From a virus: DNA of 64,000 bases. This document shows positions 37,542 to 60,727 of the stretch, piece after piece. The notes beneath the pieces are model-generated. The model did not search any database and had not been told where the DNA came from. It saw only the letters and a list, made by a program, of their open reading frames with translations. A program made the translations under genes and the position numbers. The stretch covers positions 36,494 to 100,493 of IMG/VR virus record IMGVR_UViG_3300009551_000005; one strand, 5' to 3'. The number at the start of each line of letters is the position of its first letter. Position 1 is the first letter of the stretch.

Positions 37542-38498
37542 ATGAATCCGAGGGCTGAGACGGTCGCCGCGGTGTCGGCGGAAGTTGTGAAGAAGCACGG
37601 AAGCGGCGCGGTGCTGATGAAGGGCGAGCCCGGCGAGATCATGCTCACCGAGCGCGGAGTGGTGGACACCGGGAGCCTCTCGCTCGACCTCGCGCTGGGC
37701 GTGGGCGGGTGGCCGCGCGGTGCGATCGTTGAGCTCTTCGGCACCGACGAGGACGCCAAGAGCGCGCTGGCGTTTCACGCTTGCGCGGAGTTCGGCAAGG
37801 AGGAAGGCGTGCCCGCCATCATCGACGCGAGTCACAACGTCGACATGGAACGCGCGCTCGACATGGGCGTGGACACCTCCCGTCTCCTGGTCTCGCAGCC
37901 AGACAACGCGACGCAGGCACTTGATATCGCGGAGGTCATGACGCGCTCGGGCGCGGTGGACCTTGTGATCCTGGACTCTTTCGGCGCGCTCCTCGCGCTG
38001 GAAGACGAAGGCTTTGACCGTCGCCCTCACGTCGCGCTTCGTCAGATCTGCGCCATCGCGAAGCGCACTGGGACGACCGTCTTTTTCATCACGCGTCACG
38101 GTGACGCTCCGGTGGCCGGAGGTTGGGGCATCGGCAACTCTCTCAAGTTCTACGCCAGCCTGCGCGTGGACGTGCGTCGTGAGGACGGCGCGACTGTGGC
38201 GAACGTGTGCAAGAACAAGTTCGCGGCTCCCTTCGCACGCGGGCGGTTTCGCGTGGGACGTTCTGGTGTCGAGAAGTCCGCGGAGCTCTTCGATCTCTGC
38301 ATGAAGCGCGGTGTCATCCGGCGCACCGGCCGTCTCTTCGAGTACGTCATCGCCGGCGCGTGGTCTCCGCTCGGCAACTCCGAGGAACGAGCCATCGACG
38401 CCATCCACTCCGGCGTGGGAGCCATGCCGGGGCTGGAGGGGTATCTCCGCCAGAGCGTCATGGAGAAGGGAGCGACCGCGCCTGGGGAGGGAGCATGA
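37542..38498 (+). CDS. RecA-like protein with degenerate ATPase motifs
   Basis: 318 residues aligned end to end with bacterial RecA core patterns (Gly-Gly-Trp-Pro-Arg-Gly-Ala-Ile-Val-Glu-Leu-Phe-Gly at 55-67). The Walker A is Gly-Thr-Asp-Glu-Asp-Ala-Lys-Ser (67-74), lacking the invariant Gly before Lys and the usual Thr. The catalytic Glu of Ile-Asp-Ala-Glu-His is Ser97. Walker B Leu-Asp-Ser remains (D145). ATP hydrolysis is therefore doubtful; a structural or loading partner of the intact RecA-like protein at 45761 is likely. Overlaps the sigma gene. Confidence 0.7.
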   Translation: MNPRAETVAAVSAEVVKKHGSGAVLMKGEPGEIMLTERGVVDTGSLSLDLALGVGGWPRGAIVELFGTDEDAKSALAFHACAEFGKEEGVPAIIDASHNVDMERALDMGVDTSRLLVSQPDNATQALDIAEVMTRSGAVDLVILDSFGALLALEDEGFDRRPHVALRQICAIAKRTGTTVFFITRHGDAPVAGGWGIGNSLKFYASLRVDVRREDGATVANVCKNKFAAPFARGRFRVGRSGVEKSAELFDLCMKRGVIRRTGRLFEYVIAGAWSPLGNSEERAIDAIHSGVGAMPGLEGYLRQSVMEKGATAPGEGA

Positions 38499-45745: not shown

Positions 45746-45751
45746 GGCATG
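45746..45751 (+). promoter_or_regulatory. GGCATG start element (class B variant)
   Basis: GGCATG exactly 9 nt before ATG 45761. This spacing argues for 45761 rather than 45749 as the start. Confidence 0.42.
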
Positions 45752-45760
45752 ATGAGCGCC

Positions 45761-46957
45761 ATGCCCAGGCGCTCACAACGTGACCAAGGGCTCTTCGCAG
45801 TGGCGAAGGAGCTCGACGACTTCAAACAGGCCGCCCACGTCCTCCGCAGAGTCCGAAGCGTGCCCACGATCTTCCCGATCGTGGACCATGCGTTCGGCGT
45901 GGGCGGCCTCCCCATCGACCGGTTCGGCCTCGTGCACGGTCCCTCCTCGGAGGGAAAGACCACGTTCACGCTCGGCCTCATCCTCTCGTTCATCATCCTC
46001 GAGCACTTCGCGCGGCTCATCGACGCGGAGCGAACGACGCCCATCACCTGGTGCGAAGGGCTCATGGCCAAGCTCGCGCACTCACCGCTTTTCGGCGCGC
46101 TTCGTCCGACCACCTATGAGGAGGTCGAAGCGAAGGTCAGGCGCGACTCGCACAAGCGGAAGAAGCTCCTCGACGAAGGCAGACTCCCCGCGAACACGAG
46201 CTGCCTCTACATCGTCGACTCCATCCGCAAGCTCACGCCGGCGAACATGTTCCAGAAGATCGCGCTCGACGCTGCCGGTAAGGCGCAGCGCGGGGGTGGG
46301 AAGCTCGGTTCCGACGGGATGGGAGGACGTGGCGCGCAGATCAAAGCCAACTACAACGCCGCGTGGTGCGACGAGCTGACGCCGCTCCTCGACGACACGG
46401 GCGCGGGGATGATCTGGATCGCGCGCGAGACGAAGGACAACGACGGCAACGAGACCGCGACGAAGATGTCCTACACGGACCAGGGCGTGAAGGTGGGAGG
46501 CGGAGCCGCGCCGTATTACGACGCGTCCTACGTCGCGCGCGTCGAGAAAGACGCGTGGGTCTACGAGAAGAAGCTCACGAAGGAGGAGCGCGAGGCTGGT
46601 GCCAAGAGCCCGATCGTGGGCGAGAGGTTCCGCGTCACCATCAGGAAGACCAAGGTCACCGGTAAGAAAGAGAAGGTGACGATGGGCTTCTTCCACACGG
46701 CCAACGGAAACCTCGAGGGCGTGCCCGAGGGGTTCGATCGACCGCGCGACGTTCTGGAGCTCGCGTTGAAGTTCGAGGTCGTCCGTCAGGGCGGGTCATG
46801 GTTCTCGTGGGACAAGACGCGCCTCGGCAACGGTGAGAACAACGTCCTCCGTCGGCTCCACGCGGAGCCGGACCTTTGCCAGCGGCTCGAGGCCGCGTGT
46901 CGCGAGCGCTTCGCCAACGTCGCGCCGGAAGTGGAGGCGGAAGATGCCGAGGCCTAG
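45761..46957 (+). CDS. RecA/UvsX-type recombinase
   Basis: 398 residues. Intact Walker A Gly-Pro-Ser-Ser-Glu-Gly-Lys-Thr-Thr (60-68), catalytic Glu in Ile-Asp-Ala-Glu-Arg (E90), Walker B Tyr-Ile-Val-Asp-Ser (D153), and loop L2-like Gly-Gly-Arg-Gly-Ala-Gln. Drives strand exchange for phage recombination-dependent replication. Second RecA-family gene of the window, and the only one with a complete ATPase site. N-terminus Met-Pro-Arg-Arg-Ser-Gln-Arg-Asp is shared with the 30236 protein. Overlaps the next gene by 14 nt. Confidence 0.82.
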   Translation: MPRRSQRDQGLFAVAKELDDFKQAAHVLRRVRSVPTIFPIVDHAFGVGGLPIDRFGLVHGPSSEGKTTFTLGLILSFIILEHFARLIDAERTTPITWCEGLMAKLAHSPLFGALRPTTYEEVEAKVRRDSHKRKKLLDEGRLPANTSCLYIVDSIRKLTPANMFQKIALDAAGKAQRGGGKLGSDGMGGRGAQIKANYNAAWCDELTPLLDDTGAGMIWIARETKDNDGNETATKMSYTDQGVKVGGGAAPYYDASYVARVEKDAWVYEKKLTKEEREAGAKSPIVGERFRVTIRKTKVTGKKEKVTMGFFHTANGNLEGVPEGFDRPRDVLELALKFEVVRQGGSWFSWDKTRLGNGENNVLRRLHAEPDLCQRLEAACRERFANVAPEVEAEDAEA

Positions 46958-53317: not shown

Positions 53318-54070
53318 ATGGCGAGGAACGAGAAGGCACGGGAGAAGTCTGCGAAGAAACCGCCCACGCCCAGGGAAGATGGACCGCGCATCGTCGGCGA
53401 CCCGGTGAGGACGCCGCTCGACGACGTGGAAAAGAACCCTTGGAACCCGAACGAGATGACCGCGTTCGAGCAGGAGTCGCTGAAGGACGGTCTTCAGCAC
53501 GACGGCTGGCTCGCTTCGTTGGCGCTCACGATCTGGGGCACCGACGAGAAGGGGCGGAAGAAGAACCTCATTATCGACGGTGAGCACCGGTGGACCGTCG
53601 CGAAGCAGCTCGGGTTCAAGGAAGGTCCGATGGTCTTCCTTCACGGCGTGACCGAGGCGCAGGCCAAGGCGCTCACGATCAAGCTCAACGCCAAGCGCGG
53701 CTCTCCCAACGAAGAGAAGCTCAAGATCATCGTGAAAGAGCTCGAGTTGAAGCTCCAGGTGCCGAACCTCTCGCTCGACCTCGGCATCGAGCAGGAGAAG
53801 CTCTCGATGATGCTGGCCGCGCCTCCCCTGGTCCTCGAGGGAGAGACGCCGCCGGAGAAGAACGGAACACCGCCGGGTGAGATGCCCTCGGGCATGACGT
53901 CGCACGTGCGCATGGTGCAGCTCTTCTTCAACGAGGAGCAGCACAACGAGTTCCTGGCGGCCGTGAAGAAGCTCGGCCCCATCTACTTCAAGAAGGATCC
54001 CAAGAAGCAGACGTCGACCGACATCACCATGGAGGCGATCCGTCGTGCTGTCGCTGCAACTGAGAGCTGA
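53318..54070 (+). CDS. ParB/sulfiredoxin-fold protein
   Basis: 250 residues. Asn-Pro-Trp-Asn-Pro-Asn-Glu-Met at 40-47 and Ile-Asp-Gly-Glu-His-Arg-Trp at 86-92 are the two ParB-N signatures. No helix-turn-helix domain follows; instead residues 110-160 are helical and the C-terminus resembles ParB-like proteins found next to DNA-modifying enzymes. Opens a cluster with TET/JBP, transferase-like, FAD and kinase genes, so a role in choosing or marking bases is likelier than chromosome partition (inference). Confidence 0.75.
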   Translation: MARNEKAREKSAKKPPTPREDGPRIVGDPVRTPLDDVEKNPWNPNEMTAFEQESLKDGLQHDGWLASLALTIWGTDEKGRKKNLIIDGEHRWTVAKQLGFKEGPMVFLHGVTEAQAKALTIKLNAKRGSPNEEKLKIIVKELELKLQVPNLSLDLGIEQEKLSMMLAAPPLVLEGETPPEKNGTPPGEMPSGMTSHVRMVQLFFNEEQHNEFLAAVKKLGPIYFKKDPKKQTSTDITMEAIRRAVAATES

Positions 54071-54947
54071 GGTCAACGACAAGTCCGTCCAAGCGCTCCT
54101 CGGCAAGTCGGCGGACAAGAAGGACTACAGCGTCTCGCTCACCAACGACGTCTCGGTGTTCAAGGCCAACGGGCAGCGTCTCATCACGCTCCTCCGCGGT
54201 GCCATTCCCGAGGACGAGGCGGAGAGCGCATACCCGTTCCTCCACTGGCTCCGGCACTACCGGACGATGAACCGCGGCAAGTACAGCGGGAAGGAACGAT
54301 TCAAGAAGCTCAAGGGTGACGGGACGATCTCCAACACGAACCACGCGCAGCCGGTGCGTTCGGCCATCGCCGGGTTCTTCGACCGCTACCCGCGCTTTCC
54401 GTACTGCCGCGAGACCGCGTTCGTCACCGAGAAGCCTGAGGAATGGGGCGCGTGCCTGCCGCTCATCCAGCGTGCCGGAGACCTCTTCAAGCTCCACGTC
54501 GCGGACCGGTACAAGGCGCAGCTCGACGCGGCGAAGAAGACGCACCCCGCGTACATCATCAAGGGCACACCGTTCACCACGGTGACCATCAACAACTGCG
54601 TCGCCGGCGGGTATCACACCGACGCCGGCGACTATGGTCCGGGCTTCGGCGTCATCGCGGTCCTCCGCCGCGGGAACTACAAGGGCTGCGAGCTCGTCTT
54701 CCCCAAGTACCGTTGTGCCGTCGATCTCCAGGACCGCGACGTCATCCTCTTCGACCCTCACGAGGTGCACGGCAACGTGCCTTTCGCGGACCAGGAGGGC
54801 GAGGAGGGCAAGGACTGGGAGAGGATCTCGATGGTCTTCTACTTCCGCGCCAAGATGCTGGAGTGCCTCTCGCCGGAAGAGGAGCTCGCGCGAGCGAAGG
54901 CGCGCGGCGCCCTCGAAGCGCCTGAAGAGGAGCTCCCGCAGCCGTAG
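54045..54947 (+). CDS. TET/JBP-type 2-oxoglutarate dioxygenase
   Basis: 300 residues. Tyr-His-Thr-Asp (H191, D193), the second His in Asp-Pro-His-Glu-Val-His-Gly-Asn (H239 or H242) and Arg260 in Glu-Arg-Ile-Ser-Met-Val-Phe-Tyr-Phe-Arg give the Fe(II)/2-oxoglutarate site of the TET/JBP class. Such phage enzymes oxidise the methyl of thymine or 5-methylcytosine in DNA. GTG start overlaps the ParB-like gene by 26 nt. No cytosine methyltransferase is in the window, while ThyX and thymine-type tailoring genes are, which favours thymine (inference). Confidence 0.75.
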   Translation: MLSLQLRAEVNDKSVQALLGKSADKKDYSVSLTNDVSVFKANGQRLITLLRGAIPEDEAESAYPFLHWLRHYRTMNRGKYSGKERFKKLKGDGTISNTNHAQPVRSAIAGFFDRYPRFPYCRETAFVTEKPEEWGACLPLIQRAGDLFKLHVADRYKAQLDAAKKTHPAYIIKGTPFTTVTINNCVAGGYHTDAGDYGPGFGVIAVLRRGNYKGCELVFPKYRCAVDLQDRDVILFDPHEVHGNVPFADQEGEEGKDWERISMVFYFRAKMLECLSPEEELARAKARGALEAPEEELPQP

Positions 54948-54963
54948 CGTCATCAGGGGAGCC

Positions 54964-55851
54964 GTGAAAGCCAACTCTCTGTTCAAGGACTTCTGCGCCT
55001 TCGCGTGCGGTCAGCTCGCGAGCGGTGACATCGATCCCACCTACCCCGTCCTGAAGCGCTTCTACCGAGTGGAGAAGCTCTCGCGCGAGCAGGCGCTCTG
55101 GCGGACGGTGCTCTATCTCGCCTGGTACGACCTCGGCTCCGCGGAGCGCATCTGGCGCAAGTACCCGAATCCGTTCCTGCCGACGGATTCGGAAGTGCGC
55201 GGGCTTTCGACGGGCACCGAGCGCCGATCGTTCCGGGGCAACACCAAGGTGCTCGACTTCCTGGGTGCGCTCCTTTCGCGCGCATCGCTCGAAGGAGGCT
55301 CGCTCGAGAAGTGGGTCGACTCGTTCTTCGTCGACGATCCGACGAAGGGGTGGGACCGCGCGCGCGAGGAGCTTCAGGAGCTCGCGTTCGCGGGACCTTG
55401 GGCGAGCTACAAGTGGGCCGACCTCCTGAAGCACGTGCACGACGCGCCTATCACCGCGAGCGACATCGGCGTCGGCGGACGCGGAGAGACCGCGGGGCCG
55501 ATCCCGGGGATGGTGCGTCTCACCGGGCTGCCTTGGCAGGAGTGCGCCAACGACGTGAAGAAGCAGGTCGCGCTGCTCAAGCGCGCGCAGGATGCTGGCG
55601 TGCCCTTCAACGGTCTCGACCAGCTCGAGACGGCGCTCTGCGACTTCAACTCCTTGTGCAAAGGCGGCTACTACGTCGGGCACGACATCGACACGCAGAT
55701 GAAGCATCTCGAGCACGTGAAGGACCGCGGACTTTGGGATGCGCGCGTGGTTTTCGAGGACAGGTTCCGCGGCGAGGTCTCCGGCGGATGGTTCGGTGTG
55801 CGCAAGGAGCTGAAGACGCTCTACCGCGATCAGAAAGTGCTCATCACTTGA
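54964..55851 (+). CDS. Helical base-transferase-like protein (aGPT-PPlase/HMUDK-helical type)
   Basis: 295 residues, all helical. The N-terminal part (Phe-Lys-Asp-Phe-Cys-Ala-Phe-Ala at 7-14; Tyr-Pro-Val-Leu-Lys-Arg-Phe-Tyr-Arg-Val-Glu-Lys-Leu-Ser-Arg-Glu-Gln at about 27-43; Trp-Arg-Thr-Val-Leu-Tyr-Leu-Ala-Trp) and the Gly-Leu-Pro-Trp-Gln-Glu-Cys near 185 resemble the glycosylase-like helical proteins that act in phage thymine hypermodification (alpha-glutamyl/putrescinyl-thymine pyrophosphorylase clades). Assigned partly by the neighbours. TTGA overlap with the next gene. Confidence 0.55.
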   Translation: MKANSLFKDFCAFACGQLASGDIDPTYPVLKRFYRVEKLSREQALWRTVLYLAWYDLGSAERIWRKYPNPFLPTDSEVRGLSTGTERRSFRGNTKVLDFLGALLSRASLEGGSLEKWVDSFFVDDPTKGWDRAREELQELAFAGPWASYKWADLLKHVHDAPITASDIGVGGRGETAGPIPGMVRLTGLPWQECANDVKKQVALLKRAQDAGVPFNGLDQLETALCDFNSLCKGGYYVGHDIDTQMKHLEHVKDRGLWDARVVFEDRFRGEVSGGWFGVRKELKTLYRDQKVLIT

Positions 55852-56738
55852 TTCACCTCGAGGGCATGGGTATCGTGGGCTCCATCTTGGCGTGGCACCT
55901 CCTCAACGCCGGGCGCTCCTTCACTTGGCACGACATCGACGCGAAGGTGCGCGCGTGGACTGCGTCGACGGGCGCTATCTACCCGAGCGGAGACGTCTTC
56001 GACGCGATGAACTACGAGGTCTGGTCGGACTGGTGCCACGGTGAAGCTCCGTGGGAGCGCTTCATCGGCCGGCACTACGAGACCTCGGGCTGGTGGTACT
56101 GCACGAAGAGCGCTCCCCACGGCGCCAAGGGCAAGCCGGTGGCGAGGTTCGGCATGCTGCACCGCGGGCCAGCGCCGTCGATGCACTTCAACGCGCAGAG
56201 CTTCGTGCCCGCGACGCGTGCCTACTTCCAGAAGATGCGCCGCGAGGGAACGCCGTCGGGCGCGCGCAAGGTCATCACCCACGGCTTCAGTCAGCGTCTC
56301 GACCACTACGTGTGGGGCTGGACGCGGAAGGTGAAGCTCGATTGGACAGCGCTCCGTCCGTACGAACGACACGAGCGCGCGGCTGTCTATCTCCGGCGCG
56401 GCCGCTTCGTCATGGCGTACGCGTACCCCATCCCCGGTGAGCCTTGGTGGTACGCGGGTTCGAACCTCATCGTGCAGAAGAAGGCGAGATCGTTGGTCAT
56501 CCCGCCGAAGTACGAGACGTGGAAACGGAACTTCGAGGAGCTCTCCGGTGGCGCGGTGCGCATCGTGGAGGAAGGTCCGTTCATCGAGGGATGGCGACCC
56601 GCCGGGGCAGATCTCGACGGAGACCTCGTGCGCGAGATGGACGGCGCGCTCGTCCTCAAGCCGTTCTGGAACAGTGGCATCCGTCACTCCCCGTTGACGA
56701 TGCGCGCGGCAATGGACGCGCTCGGAGGTGCAAGATGA
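55848..56738 (+). CDS. FAD-dependent oxidoreductase/lyase-like
   Basis: 296 residues. TTG start, overlapping the previous TGA, is required to include the first strand: Ile-His-Leu-Glu-Gly-Met-Gly-Ile-Val-Gly (2-11), the Gly-x-Gly-x-x-Gly of a Rossmann FAD site; an acidic end of the second strand at Asp29/Asp31 binds ribose. C-terminal Pro-Phe-Trp-Asn-Ser-Gly-Ile-Arg-His-Ser is typical of DAO-like enzymes. Related phage FAD enzymes rebuild amino-acid adducts on thymine. Substrate is inferred from the operon. Confidence 0.68.
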   Translation: MIHLEGMGIVGSILAWHLLNAGRSFTWHDIDAKVRAWTASTGAIYPSGDVFDAMNYEVWSDWCHGEAPWERFIGRHYETSGWWYCTKSAPHGAKGKPVARFGMLHRGPAPSMHFNAQSFVPATRAYFQKMRREGTPSGARKVITHGFSQRLDHYVWGWTRKVKLDWTALRPYERHERAAVYLRRGRFVMAYAYPIPGEPWWYAGSNLIVQKKARSLVIPPKYETWKRNFEELSGGAVRIVEEGPFIEGWRPAGADLDGDLVREMDGALVLKPFWNSGIRHSPLTMRAAMDALGGAR

Positions 56739-57244
56739 TCGTGTTTCTCGTCGGAGCTCCTGGAGTCGGAAAGACCACGCTGGCGCGTCAGCTCATCGGA
56801 CCGGACGCGTACCTGGTGCCCAAGCCGAAGTGGACGGTCGGCAAGATCGTCGCCGCGGGTCACTATAACGGCGGCACGTTCGATGGCGCGGACACGGTGC
56901 CCTACAACGGCGTCGAGGACTGCCTTCGTTTCTGGGAGCAGCAGCTCGAAGGCAAGGACACGCTTTTCGACGGTGACCGCTTCTCGCATGAGAAGGTCGT
57001 GAAGTGGGCGCGCGAGAAGACGCTCCTCGTGAAGTGCATCTATCTCCATGCGCTGCCGGACACGCTCGCGGCGCGGAGGAAGCAGCGCGGCTCGAATCAG
57101 AACGAGACATGGCTCAAGGGGCGCATGACCAAGGCCGCGAACTTCCAGAACCTCTTCGCATCGAGGGACATCGTGCGCGTTCACGCAGACGTCTCGCCGG
57201 AGGAGATCTACAAGCGCGTCGTCGGAGAGTTCGGGTGGCGCTGA
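56735..57244 (+). CDS. P-loop nucleotide/DNA kinase
   Basis: 169 residues. Walker A Gly-Ala-Pro-Gly-Val-Gly-Lys-Thr-Thr (7-15); a Asp-Gly-Asp-Arg-Phe-Ser at about 78-83 in place of the DxD-type second motif; a Arg-Arg-Lys-Gln-Arg-Gly lid at about 112-117. ATGA-coupled to the FAD gene. Best fit to the operon is a 5-hydroxymethylpyrimidine DNA kinase that activates the oxidised base, though an ordinary dNMP kinase cannot be excluded. Confidence 0.68.
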   Translation: MIVFLVGAPGVGKTTLARQLIGPDAYLVPKPKWTVGKIVAAGHYNGGTFDGADTVPYNGVEDCLRFWEQQLEGKDTLFDGDRFSHEKVVKWAREKTLLVKCIYLHALPDTLAARRKQRGSNQNETWLKGRMTKAANFQNLFASRDIVRVHADVSPEEIYKRVVGEFGWR

Positions 57245-59255: not shown

Positions 59256-59505
59256 CGAGCTGAAGGTCATCCCGATGCCTCATCGCTATGCGCCTCCGTG
59301 GGCGCTCTGGGTGGTGGGTGTCTATTCGGACCGCGACGAAGATGGGGAGCTTTACTGGAGCGCGGAGTGCCGGCGGTGCGGTGCGCACTATCCGCCTCAG
59401 ATGAAGGGCGCGCCGGCGGCGCTCAAGTGCACCTCCGGCATGGTGCGCCGGAGGATCGGCTTGTTCGCGTCGGACCATGTGAAGTGCGAGGAGAAGAAGA
59501 CATGA
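59248..59505 (+). CDS. Small zinc-ribbon-like protein
   Basis: 85 residues. Cys-Arg-Arg-Cys-Gly-Ala-His-Tyr at about 41-48 and further Cys at about 61 and 80 could bind zinc. Its stop overlaps the ThyX start. Function unknown. Confidence 0.55.
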   Translation: MADELKVIPMPHRYAPPWALWVVGVYSDRDEDGELYWSAECRRCGAHYPPQMKGAPAALKCTSGMVRRRIGLFASDHVKCEEKKT

Positions 59506-60353
59506 CCGGAATGGTGAATCAGTGGGGAATGCAGGGGACTGAGAAGAAGCTCCTCGACCACGGCTACGTGCGGGTCATCGAGCTCTGGGGAAGCGATCAG
59601 CGCGTCGTTGAGAGCGCGCGCATGTCCACCGGCAAGGACTTCAAGGGGTGGGGCCCGCACGAGGGCGTCTGCAAGCGTTGCGGCGCGAAGGAGTCCGAGG
59701 CGAAGGAGAAGGCCGTCCAAGTCGGCAAGGCGCGCTCCTTCTGCGAGGAGGATGTGGCGGGCAACCATGATTGGGAGCGGAAGCCCGGCGATGAGAAGCT
59801 CCTCGGGTACCTCTGGAAGAATCAGCACACGACGCCGTTCGAGATGGCGGGTCTCACCGTGGAGGTCCAGGCGCCGATCTTCGTCTTCCGCGAGTGGCAC
59901 CGGCACCGCACGCAGAGCTACAGCGAGGCGTCCGCGCGCTACGAGCCGTTGCCCGACCTGAACTACGTGCCCTCGATTGAGCGCTGCCTGATGGGCGGAG
60001 GTCATCTCACGAAGCAGGCGGGCAGCGTTGCCGGCGCGGAGGAGCTCAACGCAGCCGGCGCGGAGCTCTTCCGCCATCTCCTCATCGAGGAGTACGAGCG
60101 GTGCCAGCAGACCTACGAGCGCGCGCTGAAGGGAGGCATCCCCAAGGAGCTCGCGCGTCTCGTCTTGCCCGTCGGTCGTTACTCCAAGATGCGCGCGAGC
60201 ACGGATCTTCTGAACTGGCTGAAGTTCCTCAAGCTGCGCATGGACGCGACCGCGCAGTGGGAGATCCGCCAGTACGCCGAAGCCGTCGGCGAGATTGTCG
60301 CGTTCAACTTCCCGCGCGTGTGGGAGTTCTTCCTCGAGTCGAGGGCAAAGTGA
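59502..60353 (+). CDS. thyX: Flavin-dependent thymidylate synthase ThyX
   Basis: 283 residues. The signature Arg-His-Arg-(7)-Ser is present as Arg-His-Arg-Thr-Gln-Ser-Tyr-Ser-Glu-Ala-Ser at about 133-143; Ala-Arg-Met-Ser-Thr-Gly-Lys at about 34-40 and Leu-Pro-Val-Gly-Arg-Tyr-Ser near 222 fit the family. A 45-residue insert at about 50-95 carries Cys-Lys-Arg-Cys-Gly and a later Cys/His pair, a zinc module also seen in some phage ThyX. Makes dTMP from dUMP, so thymine (not hydroxymethyluracil) is the base supplied for replication. Confidence 0.88.
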   Translation: MTGMVNQWGMQGTEKKLLDHGYVRVIELWGSDQRVVESARMSTGKDFKGWGPHEGVCKRCGAKESEAKEKAVQVGKARSFCEEDVAGNHDWERKPGDEKLLGYLWKNQHTTPFEMAGLTVEVQAPIFVFREWHRHRTQSYSEASARYEPLPDLNYVPSIERCLMGGGHLTKQAGSVAGAEELNAAGAELFRHLLIEEYERCQQTYERALKGGIPKELARLVLPVGRYSKMRASTDLLNWLKFLKLRMDATAQWEIRQYAEAVGEIVAFNFPRVWEFFLESRAK

Positions 60354-60727
60354 GCGAGCTTCCCGGGAGGCGGAACGACAAGGGAAAGTGGCGCTTCTCG
60401 CTCTTTCCGTTCGACGCGCTCCGCGCGGTGGCGAACGTCCTCGAGCACGGCGCTCGCAAGTATGCGGAGTGGAACTGGCTCGACATCCCAGATTCCAGGG
60501 AGCGCTGTCTCAACTCCCTCATGCGCCACACGTTCGCGTGGTGGCAGGGCGAGACCTGGGACTTCGGCACGCCGGAGGAGCCCGGAACGGGAGAGCGTCA
60601 CCTCGCGTGCATGGCCTGCAACGTCATCTTCCTGCTGACGCTCGAGATCCGCGGGAAGATCGACTCTGAGCCCAGGGTGCAACCGGACTGGTGGCGCGCC
60701 GTCGGTGATCGATCACCGACGGCGTAG
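60350..60727 (+). CDS. dATP/dGTP pyrophosphohydrolase (DUF5664/MazZ-like)
   Basis: 125 residues, GTGA-coupled to thyX. Trp-Arg-Phe-Ser-Leu-Phe-Pro-Phe-Asp-Ala-Leu (14-24), Glu-His-Gly-Ala-Arg-Lys-Tyr (about 33-39), Leu-Met-Arg-His-Thr-Phe-Ala-Trp and Glu-Arg-His-Leu-Ala-Cys-Met-Ala-Cys-Asn match the N-terminal dATP/dGTP diphosphohydrolase family. Palindrome copy 14 codes the last residues (Val-Gly-Asp-Arg-Ser-Pro-Thr-Ala, then stop). Trims the purine dNTP pool; no PurZ is in the window. Confidence 0.72.
   Translation: MSELPGRRNDKGKWRFSLFPFDALRAVANVLEHGARKYAEWNWLDIPDSRERCLNSLMRHTFAWWQGETWDFGTPEEPGTGERHLACMACNVIFLLTLEIRGKIDSEPRVQPDWWRAVGDRSPTA
60699..60722. repeat. Palindrome copy 14 (coding, C-terminal)
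   Basis: Perfect 24-bp copy that forms the last codons of the pyrophosphohydrolase gene; stop follows three bases later. Confidence 0.92.

What the first reader, a model, noticed from the sequence alone, without database searches (positions are those of the whole stretch)
53318..57244. DNA hypermodification island: ParB-like, TET/JBP oxygenase, base-transferase-like, FAD enzyme, kinase
Five overlapping genes combine a TET/JBP dioxygenase (H191, D193, R260) with an FAD Rossmann enzyme and a P-loop kinase, plus a helical protein like those in thymine hypermodification. In known thymine pathways the hydroxymethyl group is added to dUMP before replication; here ThyX supplies dTMP, and the TET/JBP enzyme could make hydroxymethyl-uracil from thymine in DNA, followed by phosphorylation and amino-acid or amine transfer, and FAD-based remodelling. 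That would be a post-replicative, oxidation-first route. If instead the substrate is 5-methylcytosine, a methyltransferase must lie outside this window.
Basis: partly seen in the sequence, partly recalled or inferred. Interest (0 to 1): 0.85.

Follow-up and report, generated by a model that had tools for sequence, protein, structure and literature searches.

The report
Phage thymine DNA-hypermodification gene island
This virus carries five adjacent genes that most likely oxidise thymine already in its DNA and then attach and trim an amino acid there, probably to hide from bacterial restriction enzymes; the gene set has been reported before in a few phages, but its chemistry has not, as far as I found, been tested.

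Summary
Window 53318-57244 encodes a ParB-like protein, a TET/JBP oxygenase (His191, Asp193, His242 and Arg260 invariant in 26 relatives), an amino acid:DNA transferase (AADT), a flavoprotein and a P-loop kinase. Three of the four junctions overlap.

The AADT model matches only one solved enzyme significantly: the 5-phosphomethyl-dU glycinyltransferase gp46 of a Pseudomonas phage. The flavoprotein has an amino-acid-oxidase fold and is distantly related to a family matching a solved flavin-dependent lyase.

Among 98 AADT-bearing virus records, none of the 81 with TET has a ThyA-fold enzyme. Six of the 17 without TET do, and the one compared with known phages is 46% identical to the dUMP hydroxymethyltransferase of phage M6. 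The exchange recurs across the AADT tree. The whole record (100,493 bases) has no C5-methyltransferase, so thymine in DNA is the likely substrate.

The set is not new as a kind. [quoted passage not shown] What I add is the repeated exchange, the ParB-TET association, and the assignment of the flavoprotein as a probable aminoacyl-thymine oxidase/lyase. The base and product need chemistry to settle.

The parts
53318..54070 (+). ParB-like protein (250 aa), first gene of the island; probable DNA-binding partner of the TET enzyme (inferred)
   Evidence: PHROG ParB-like 8e-18, Pfam ParB_N sub-threshold; a ParB lies within 6 kb of AADT in 59 of 65 TET-bearing tree rows and in 0 of 6 dUMP-hydroxymethylase rows
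54045..54947 (+). TET/JBP 2-oxoglutarate/Fe(II) oxygenase (300 aa, GTG start); H191, D193, H242 iron ligands, R260 2-oxoglutarate site
   Evidence: PF12851 4.4e-21; invariant residues in 26 sequences
54964..55851 (+). Amino acid:DNA transferase (AADT / aGPT-PPlase2), 295 aa, all-helical
   Evidence: PF18724 1.9e-9; model pLDDT 93.8, significant PDB matches only to gp46/PUGT glycinyltransferase 8z2m/8z2n; profile E 1e-18 to 8z2m and 2e-28 to 25qc
55848..56738 (+). FAD enzyme with D-amino-acid/glycine oxidase fold (296 aa, TTG start); GxGxxG at residues 6-11 and invariant W249-R250-P251
   Evidence: model pLDDT 89.1; Foldseek to D-amino acid oxidase E 1.6e-11 and glycine oxidase E 4.6e-8; hhalign to second island flavoprotein family E 9e-6 over 256 columns, which hits flavin-dependent lyases 8z2o/8z79 at E 4e-27
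56735..57244 (+). P-loop nucleotide kinase of the Ploopntkinase3 family, probable 5-hydroxymethyl-dU DNA kinase (169 aa)
   Evidence: PF18751 1.1e-7; the island kinase profile also finds the M6 HMUDK_HMUD1 gene at 3e-7
59502..60353 (+). ThyX (flavin-dependent thymidylate synthase), downstream; context only, not shown to be part of the pathway
   Evidence: PF02511 4.2e-41

Best explanation
A post-replicative thymine hypermodification pathway. The TET/JBP enzyme, probably positioned by the ParB-like protein, hydroxylates the methyl group of selected thymines already in viral DNA to 5-hydroxymethyl-dU. The kinase phosphorylates that hydroxyl. The AADT displaces the phosphate with an amino acid, most likely glycine. 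The flavoprotein oxidises or cleaves the attached amino acid, plausibly leaving 5-aminomethyl-dU, and the modified base protects DNA from restriction. Shown here: gene identities, catalytic residues, folds, conserved linkage, and absence of both alternative hydroxymethyl sources from the record. Inferred: the thymine substrate, the order of steps, the amino acid, the product, the ParB role and the protective function.
For: Families and residues. The AADT matches the solved 5-phosphomethyl-dU glycinyltransferase. The flavoprotein has an amino-acid-oxidase fold and a distant link to the flavin-dependent lyase family. TET and the ThyA-fold hydroxymethylase exclude each other: 0 of 81 TET-bearing AADT records have the ThyA-fold enzyme, against 6 of 17 TET-lacking ones (Fisher p 1.2e-5, or 4.8e-5 on 70% representatives); among records of at least 40 kb it is 0 of 32 against 5 of 6. 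One of the ThyA-fold enzymes is 46% identical to the M6 dUMP hydroxymethyltransferase. On the AADT tree the six hydroxymethylase rows need six changes, at least five forced by supported branches. Positive control M6, whose hypermodified base is known, matches the island AADT, kinase, PLP and radical-SAM profiles and has no TET or ParB. No C5-methyltransferase and no TET-associated glycosyltransferase in this record. Five complete isolate genomes with TET+AADT have no C5-methyltransferase, ThyA or ThyX.
Against: No biochemical evidence. Known phage TETs act on 5-methylcytosine (own knowledge, Burke et al. 2021, not held in the library). Methylophilales phage Melnitz pairs a related kinase with TET and an HhaI-type C5-methyltransferase, so the kinase family does not prove thymine. 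Nine of 81 TET-bearing records have a C5-methyltransferase hit. The phylogenetic sign test is one-directional but has too few pairs for significance (p 0.06-0.13). Record completeness is unknown. Caulobacter phage Cr30 has TET, an AADT and a ThyA-fold enzyme together, though its ThyA is a normal one (373 bits).
Confidence: 0.75

Rival explanations
1. The TET enzyme oxidises 5-methylcytosine made by a host or unseen viral C5-methyltransferase, and the kinase, AADT and flavoprotein decorate 5-hydroxymethylcytosine.
For: Known phage TETs work on 5-methylcytosine (own knowledge). Melnitz has C5-methyltransferase, TET and a related kinase side by side. Nine of 81 TET+AADT records have a C5-methyltransferase hit.
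Against: No C5-methyltransferase in this record, in 72 of 81 TET+AADT records, or in five complete isolate genomes. The solved AADT relative is a 5-phosphomethyl-dU enzyme. TET is exchanged with an M6-like dUMP hydroxymethylase, not with a cytosine enzyme.
Confidence: 0.12
2. Hydroxymethyl-dU is made before replication by another enzyme (an unseen dUMP hydroxymethylase or a specialised ThyX), and TET does something else, such as further oxidation.
For: The window has ThyX. One long TET-lacking, ThyA-lacking AADT record also has a ThyX-fold hit (G049). The record may be incomplete.
Against: ThyX occurs in only 4 of 32 long TET-bearing records. Five complete isolate genomes carry TET+AADT with neither ThyA nor ThyX. 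TET never co-occurs with the hydroxymethylase type among the 98 records counted.
Confidence: 0.08
3. The island does not modify the virus's own DNA but acts on host DNA, RNA or nucleotides, or is inactive.
For: No virion chemistry exists for any of these phages in the papers I could read.
Against: All catalytic residues are conserved. Synteny persists in dozens of distantly related phages, and the genes match the proven M6 pathway.
Confidence: 0.05

Closest known systems
Five-gene 'thymine hypermodification system' of Rhodococcus phage Tonitrus (PMC11955845) and genes 1-5 of Gordonia DR-cluster phage CaiB (PMC9302106)
   Same: The same five families: ParB-like, TET/JBP, AADT (aGPT-PPlase2), kinase, FAD protein
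   Different: Only 31-35% protein identity for AADT and flavoprotein. Kinase and flavoprotein order is swapped. CaiB's island sits directly before the terminase gene; here it follows SbcCD-like genes.
Thymidine hypermodification pathways of Pseudomonas phages M6 and PaMx11, and Salmonella phage ViI
   Same: AADT, hydroxymethyl-dU DNA kinase role, and tailoring enzymes (flavin-dependent lyase, PLP, radical SAM elsewhere in the family)
   Different: Those phages are thought to make hydroxymethyl-dU before replication, M6 with a dUMP hydroxymethyltransferase. Here that enzyme is absent and a TET/JBP enzyme and ParB are present. The kinase is Ploopntkinase3 rather than HMUDK_HMUD1.
TET-based 5-methylcytosine hypermodification of phages (C5-methyltransferase, TET, TET-associated glycosyltransferase)
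   Same: TET/JBP oxygenase acting on polymerised DNA, followed by decoration of the hydroxyl
   Different: No C5-methyltransferase and no TAGT in this record. Decoration is by kinase and AADT, not by a glycosyltransferase.
Base J synthesis (JBP1/2) in kinetoplastids
   Same: Thymine in DNA is hydroxylated by a TET/JBP enzyme
   Different: Base J is glucosylated. Here the predicted follow-up is phosphorylation and amino-acid transfer.

Membership tests
TET/JBP dioxygenase family | HxD...H iron site and 2-oxoglutarate Arg in the 2OGFeDO fold | tested here: met
   PF12851 4.4e-21; H191, D193, H242, R260 invariant
Amino acid:DNA transferase (AADT) | PF18724 profile and the glycinyltransferase fold | tested here: met
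   Above curated cut-off; only significant PDB matches are 8z2m/8z2n
Five-gene TET-AADT island (Tonitrus/CaiB type) | ParB, TET/JBP, AADT, kinase and FAD genes adjacent | tested here: met
   same flavoprotein family in CaiB and Tonitrus
M6/ViI-type thymidine hypermodification | dUMP hydroxymethyltransferase (divergent ThyA fold) | tested here: not met
   No PF00303 match in the 100,493-base record
M6/ViI-type thymidine hypermodification | Hydroxymethyl-dU DNA kinase | tested here: inconclusive
   Kinase present but of Ploopntkinase3, not HMUDK_HMUD1; the two are related
M6/ViI-type thymidine hypermodification | Modified thymidine in virion DNA | not testable with these tools
   Needs nucleoside mass spectrometry
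Flavin-dependent lyase of thymidine hypermodification | Sequence or fold relation to 8z2o/8z79 | tested here: inconclusive
   Amino-acid-oxidase fold; direct profile search misses 8z2o, but hhalign links it to the second flavoprotein family (E 9e-6), which hits 8z2o at 4e-27
TET 5-methylcytosine hypermodification | C5-methyltransferase and TET-associated glycosyltransferase | tested here: not met
   No PF00145 and no PF20691 in the record

The most novel reading that the evidence does not exclude
A widespread in-DNA route to hypermodified thymine, in which a ParB-guided TET/JBP oxygenase has repeatedly replaced (or been replaced by) the dUMP hydroxymethylase, so modification can be placed at chosen thymines after replication instead of through the nucleotide pool, and the flavoprotein turns glycyl-thymine into aminomethyl-dU.
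Probability: 0.5. Interest if true: 0.7.

Novelty: new member of a known kind. Interest (0 to 1): 0.52.

Why it matters
All thymine hypermodification routes with worked-out chemistry that I know of start by filling the nucleotide pool with hydroxymethyl-dU. If TET/JBP enzymes start it on finished DNA, phages have a second, targetable entry to the same chemistry, and phages that infect bacteria have a thymine-hydroxylating counterpart of eukaryotic base J synthesis. Such enzymes would be useful for installing amines on thymine in DNA. Cultured phages (CaiB, Reprobate, Kozie, Tonitrus) carry the core set, so the question can be tested directly.

Tried and rejected
Searched the whole record for a C5-methyltransferase, ThyA fold, PurZ and TAGT: none. 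tblastn with TET alone in viral contigs gave few loci, so AADT was used as bait. phmmer of TET and the kinase against PDB found nothing useful. Direct PDB profile searches with the flavoprotein failed; fold comparison worked. The ThyX argument was tested and found uninformative. The idea that ThyA presence simply follows one AADT lineage was tested on a tree and rejected: six scattered rows need six changes. The primary papers (Iyer 2013, Lee 2018, Lee 2021, Burke 2021, Wen 2024) are not held, so what they predicted is cited only through other papers or as own knowledge.

Full report
What is there. The window lies at 36494-100493 of a 100,493-base virus record of unknown completeness. At 53318-57244 five same-strand genes encode a ParB-like protein, a TET/JBP oxygenase, an amino acid:DNA transferase (AADT), a flavoprotein and a P-loop kinase. 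ParB and TET overlap by 26 nt; AADT/flavoprotein and flavoprotein/kinase overlap by 4 nt each; TET and AADT are 16 nt apart. So 'five overlapping genes' is right except at one junction. H242, the third iron ligand, completes the set, and all four are invariant in 26 relatives.

The base transferase. The protein is a member of Pfam ADDT. A 34-row alignment keeps motifs such as DxDP, ERR and YYxGxDID. The model (pLDDT 93.8) has three PDB matches at E below 0.001, all to the 5-phosphomethyl-dU glycinyltransferase gp46/PUGT of a Pseudomonas phage. Sequence profiles find the same enzyme at 1e-18 and another AADT entry, 25qc, at 2e-28. This supports thymine-type chemistry: hydroxymethyl-dU, phosphate, then amino acid.

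The flavoprotein. It has no Pfam family. Its model (pLDDT 89) has the fold of D-amino acid oxidase, with glycine and sarcosine oxidases close behind. The nucleotide-binding GxGxxG and a WRP motif are invariant in 19 relatives. By own knowledge, an Arg in a similar GxRP motif binds the substrate carboxylate in this fold; I did not map it structurally. A second, unrelated-looking flavoprotein family fills the same slot in other islands. Its profile hits two solved flavin-dependent lyases at 4e-27, and the two families align over 256 columns (hhalign E 9e-6, probability 83). The best reading is an oxidase or lyase acting on the amino acid attached to thymine. By analogy with the structural study of glycyl-thymidine and 5-NmdU synthesis (title seen in the reference list of PMC11946847), the product would be 5-aminomethyl-dU.

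A conserved core with exchangeable tailoring. I collected 99 AADT loci. ParB, TET, AADT and kinase occur together near AADT in 69. The tailoring slot holds the flavoprotein seen here (28 loci, window included), the second flavoprotein (50 loci), or a PLP enzyme (11), with a radical SAM enzyme in 14; the first three never occur together. Acetyltransferases and amidoligases also appear. This is the same toolkit as in phage M6: the island-derived AADT, PLP, radical-SAM and kinase profiles match M6 genes at 7e-31, 4e-112, 4e-190 and 3e-7, while TET and ParB profiles find nothing in M6.

Where the hydroxymethyl group comes from. Among 98 AADT-bearing records, 81 have TET and none of these has a ThyA-fold gene. 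Of 17 without TET, six have one (Fisher p 1.2e-5; with one record per 70% cluster 4.8e-5; among records of at least 40 kb, 0 of 32 against 5 of 6, p 1.2e-5). These ThyA-fold proteins are divergent (69-79 bits, against 373 for a normal ThyA in Cr30). The one compared with known phages is 46% identical over its length to the M6 enzyme, annotated deoxyuridylate hydroxymethyltransferase in close relatives. On an AADT tree of 76 rows, hydroxymethylase rows are scattered and need six changes, at least five forced by well-supported branches. Independent-pair tests all point the same way but are too few for significance (p 0.06-0.13). The simplest reading is that TET and dUMP hydroxymethylase are alternative sources of the same intermediate.

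Thymine or 5-methylcytosine. The record has no C5-methyltransferase. Nine of 81 TET+AADT records have a hit, some clearly real. Five complete isolate genomes (CaiB, Tonitrus, Reprobate, Kozie, LilMcDreamy) have TET and AADT but no C5-methyltransferase, ThyA or ThyX. As a contrast, Melnitz, which has no AADT hit, carries an HhaI-type methyltransferase directly before its TET, and also a kinase of the island's family. So the kinase alone does not decide the base. AADT and the exchange with dUMP hydroxymethylase argue for thymine.

ParB. A ParB-like gene lies within 6 kb of AADT in 59 of 65 TET rows of the tree and in none of the six hydroxymethylase rows (Fisher p 6e-6, not corrected for kinship). 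Pelagibacter phage HTVC112P has ParB next to TET without AADT. I infer that ParB serves the TET step on DNA, for example by loading or targeting.

Novelty. [quoted passage not shown] Both lean on earlier computational and biochemical work that I could not read. The kind is therefore known, as a prediction. New here are the member, the repeated exchange, the ParB-TET link and the flavoprotein assignment.

Open points. One 248-kb record (G049) has AADT and radical SAM but neither TET nor ThyA; it has a ThyX-fold hit. Cr30 has TET, AADT and a normal ThyA together; it was found through TET and is not in the 98-record count.

Noticed in passing
window 60295-60727 (ORF 60101-60727): A dATP/dGTP diphosphohydrolase (PF18909, 5e-27), a family I recall from phages that replace adenine with 2-aminoadenine. 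No PurZ (PF00709) is in the record, so that system is not supported.
   Followed up: partly
L067 5369-7591 (Pelagibacter phage HTVC112P): ParB-TET followed directly by an FkbM-type methyltransferase, with no AADT: possibly a different decoration of the TET product.
   Followed up: no
L070 4010-8090 (Methylophilales phage Melnitz-3): HhaI-type C5-methyltransferase, TET, a 427-aa protein with no Pfam match, and a kinase of the island's family in a row: a possible amino-acid or other decoration of 5-hydroxymethylcytosine.
   Followed up: partly
L095 10013-17314 and L096 2129-9430: Islands with two TET genes, three ParB genes, AADT, flavoprotein and an acetyltransferase; the first lies in a 327-kb record that also has a clear C5-methyltransferase.
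   Followed up: no
L076 10022-12432 (248-kb record G049): AADT (split over two frames) and radical SAM without TET or ThyA fold; only a ThyX-fold hit. Source of hydroxymethyl-dU unexplained.
   Followed up: partly
L034, L104, L110, L116, L120, L121 islands: Amidoligase-like genes (PF12224), in some with a low-molecular-weight phosphatase, between AADT and kinase: perhaps further tailoring of the amino acid.
   Followed up: no
L006 gene 2 and PHROG phrog_6059: TET/JBP proteins of Mycobacterium phages are annotated as queuine tRNA-ribosyltransferase in GenBank and PHROGs, probably a misannotation.
   Followed up: partly
window 37542-38498 and 45749-46957: Two separate RecA-related proteins in one phage record.
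   Followed up: no
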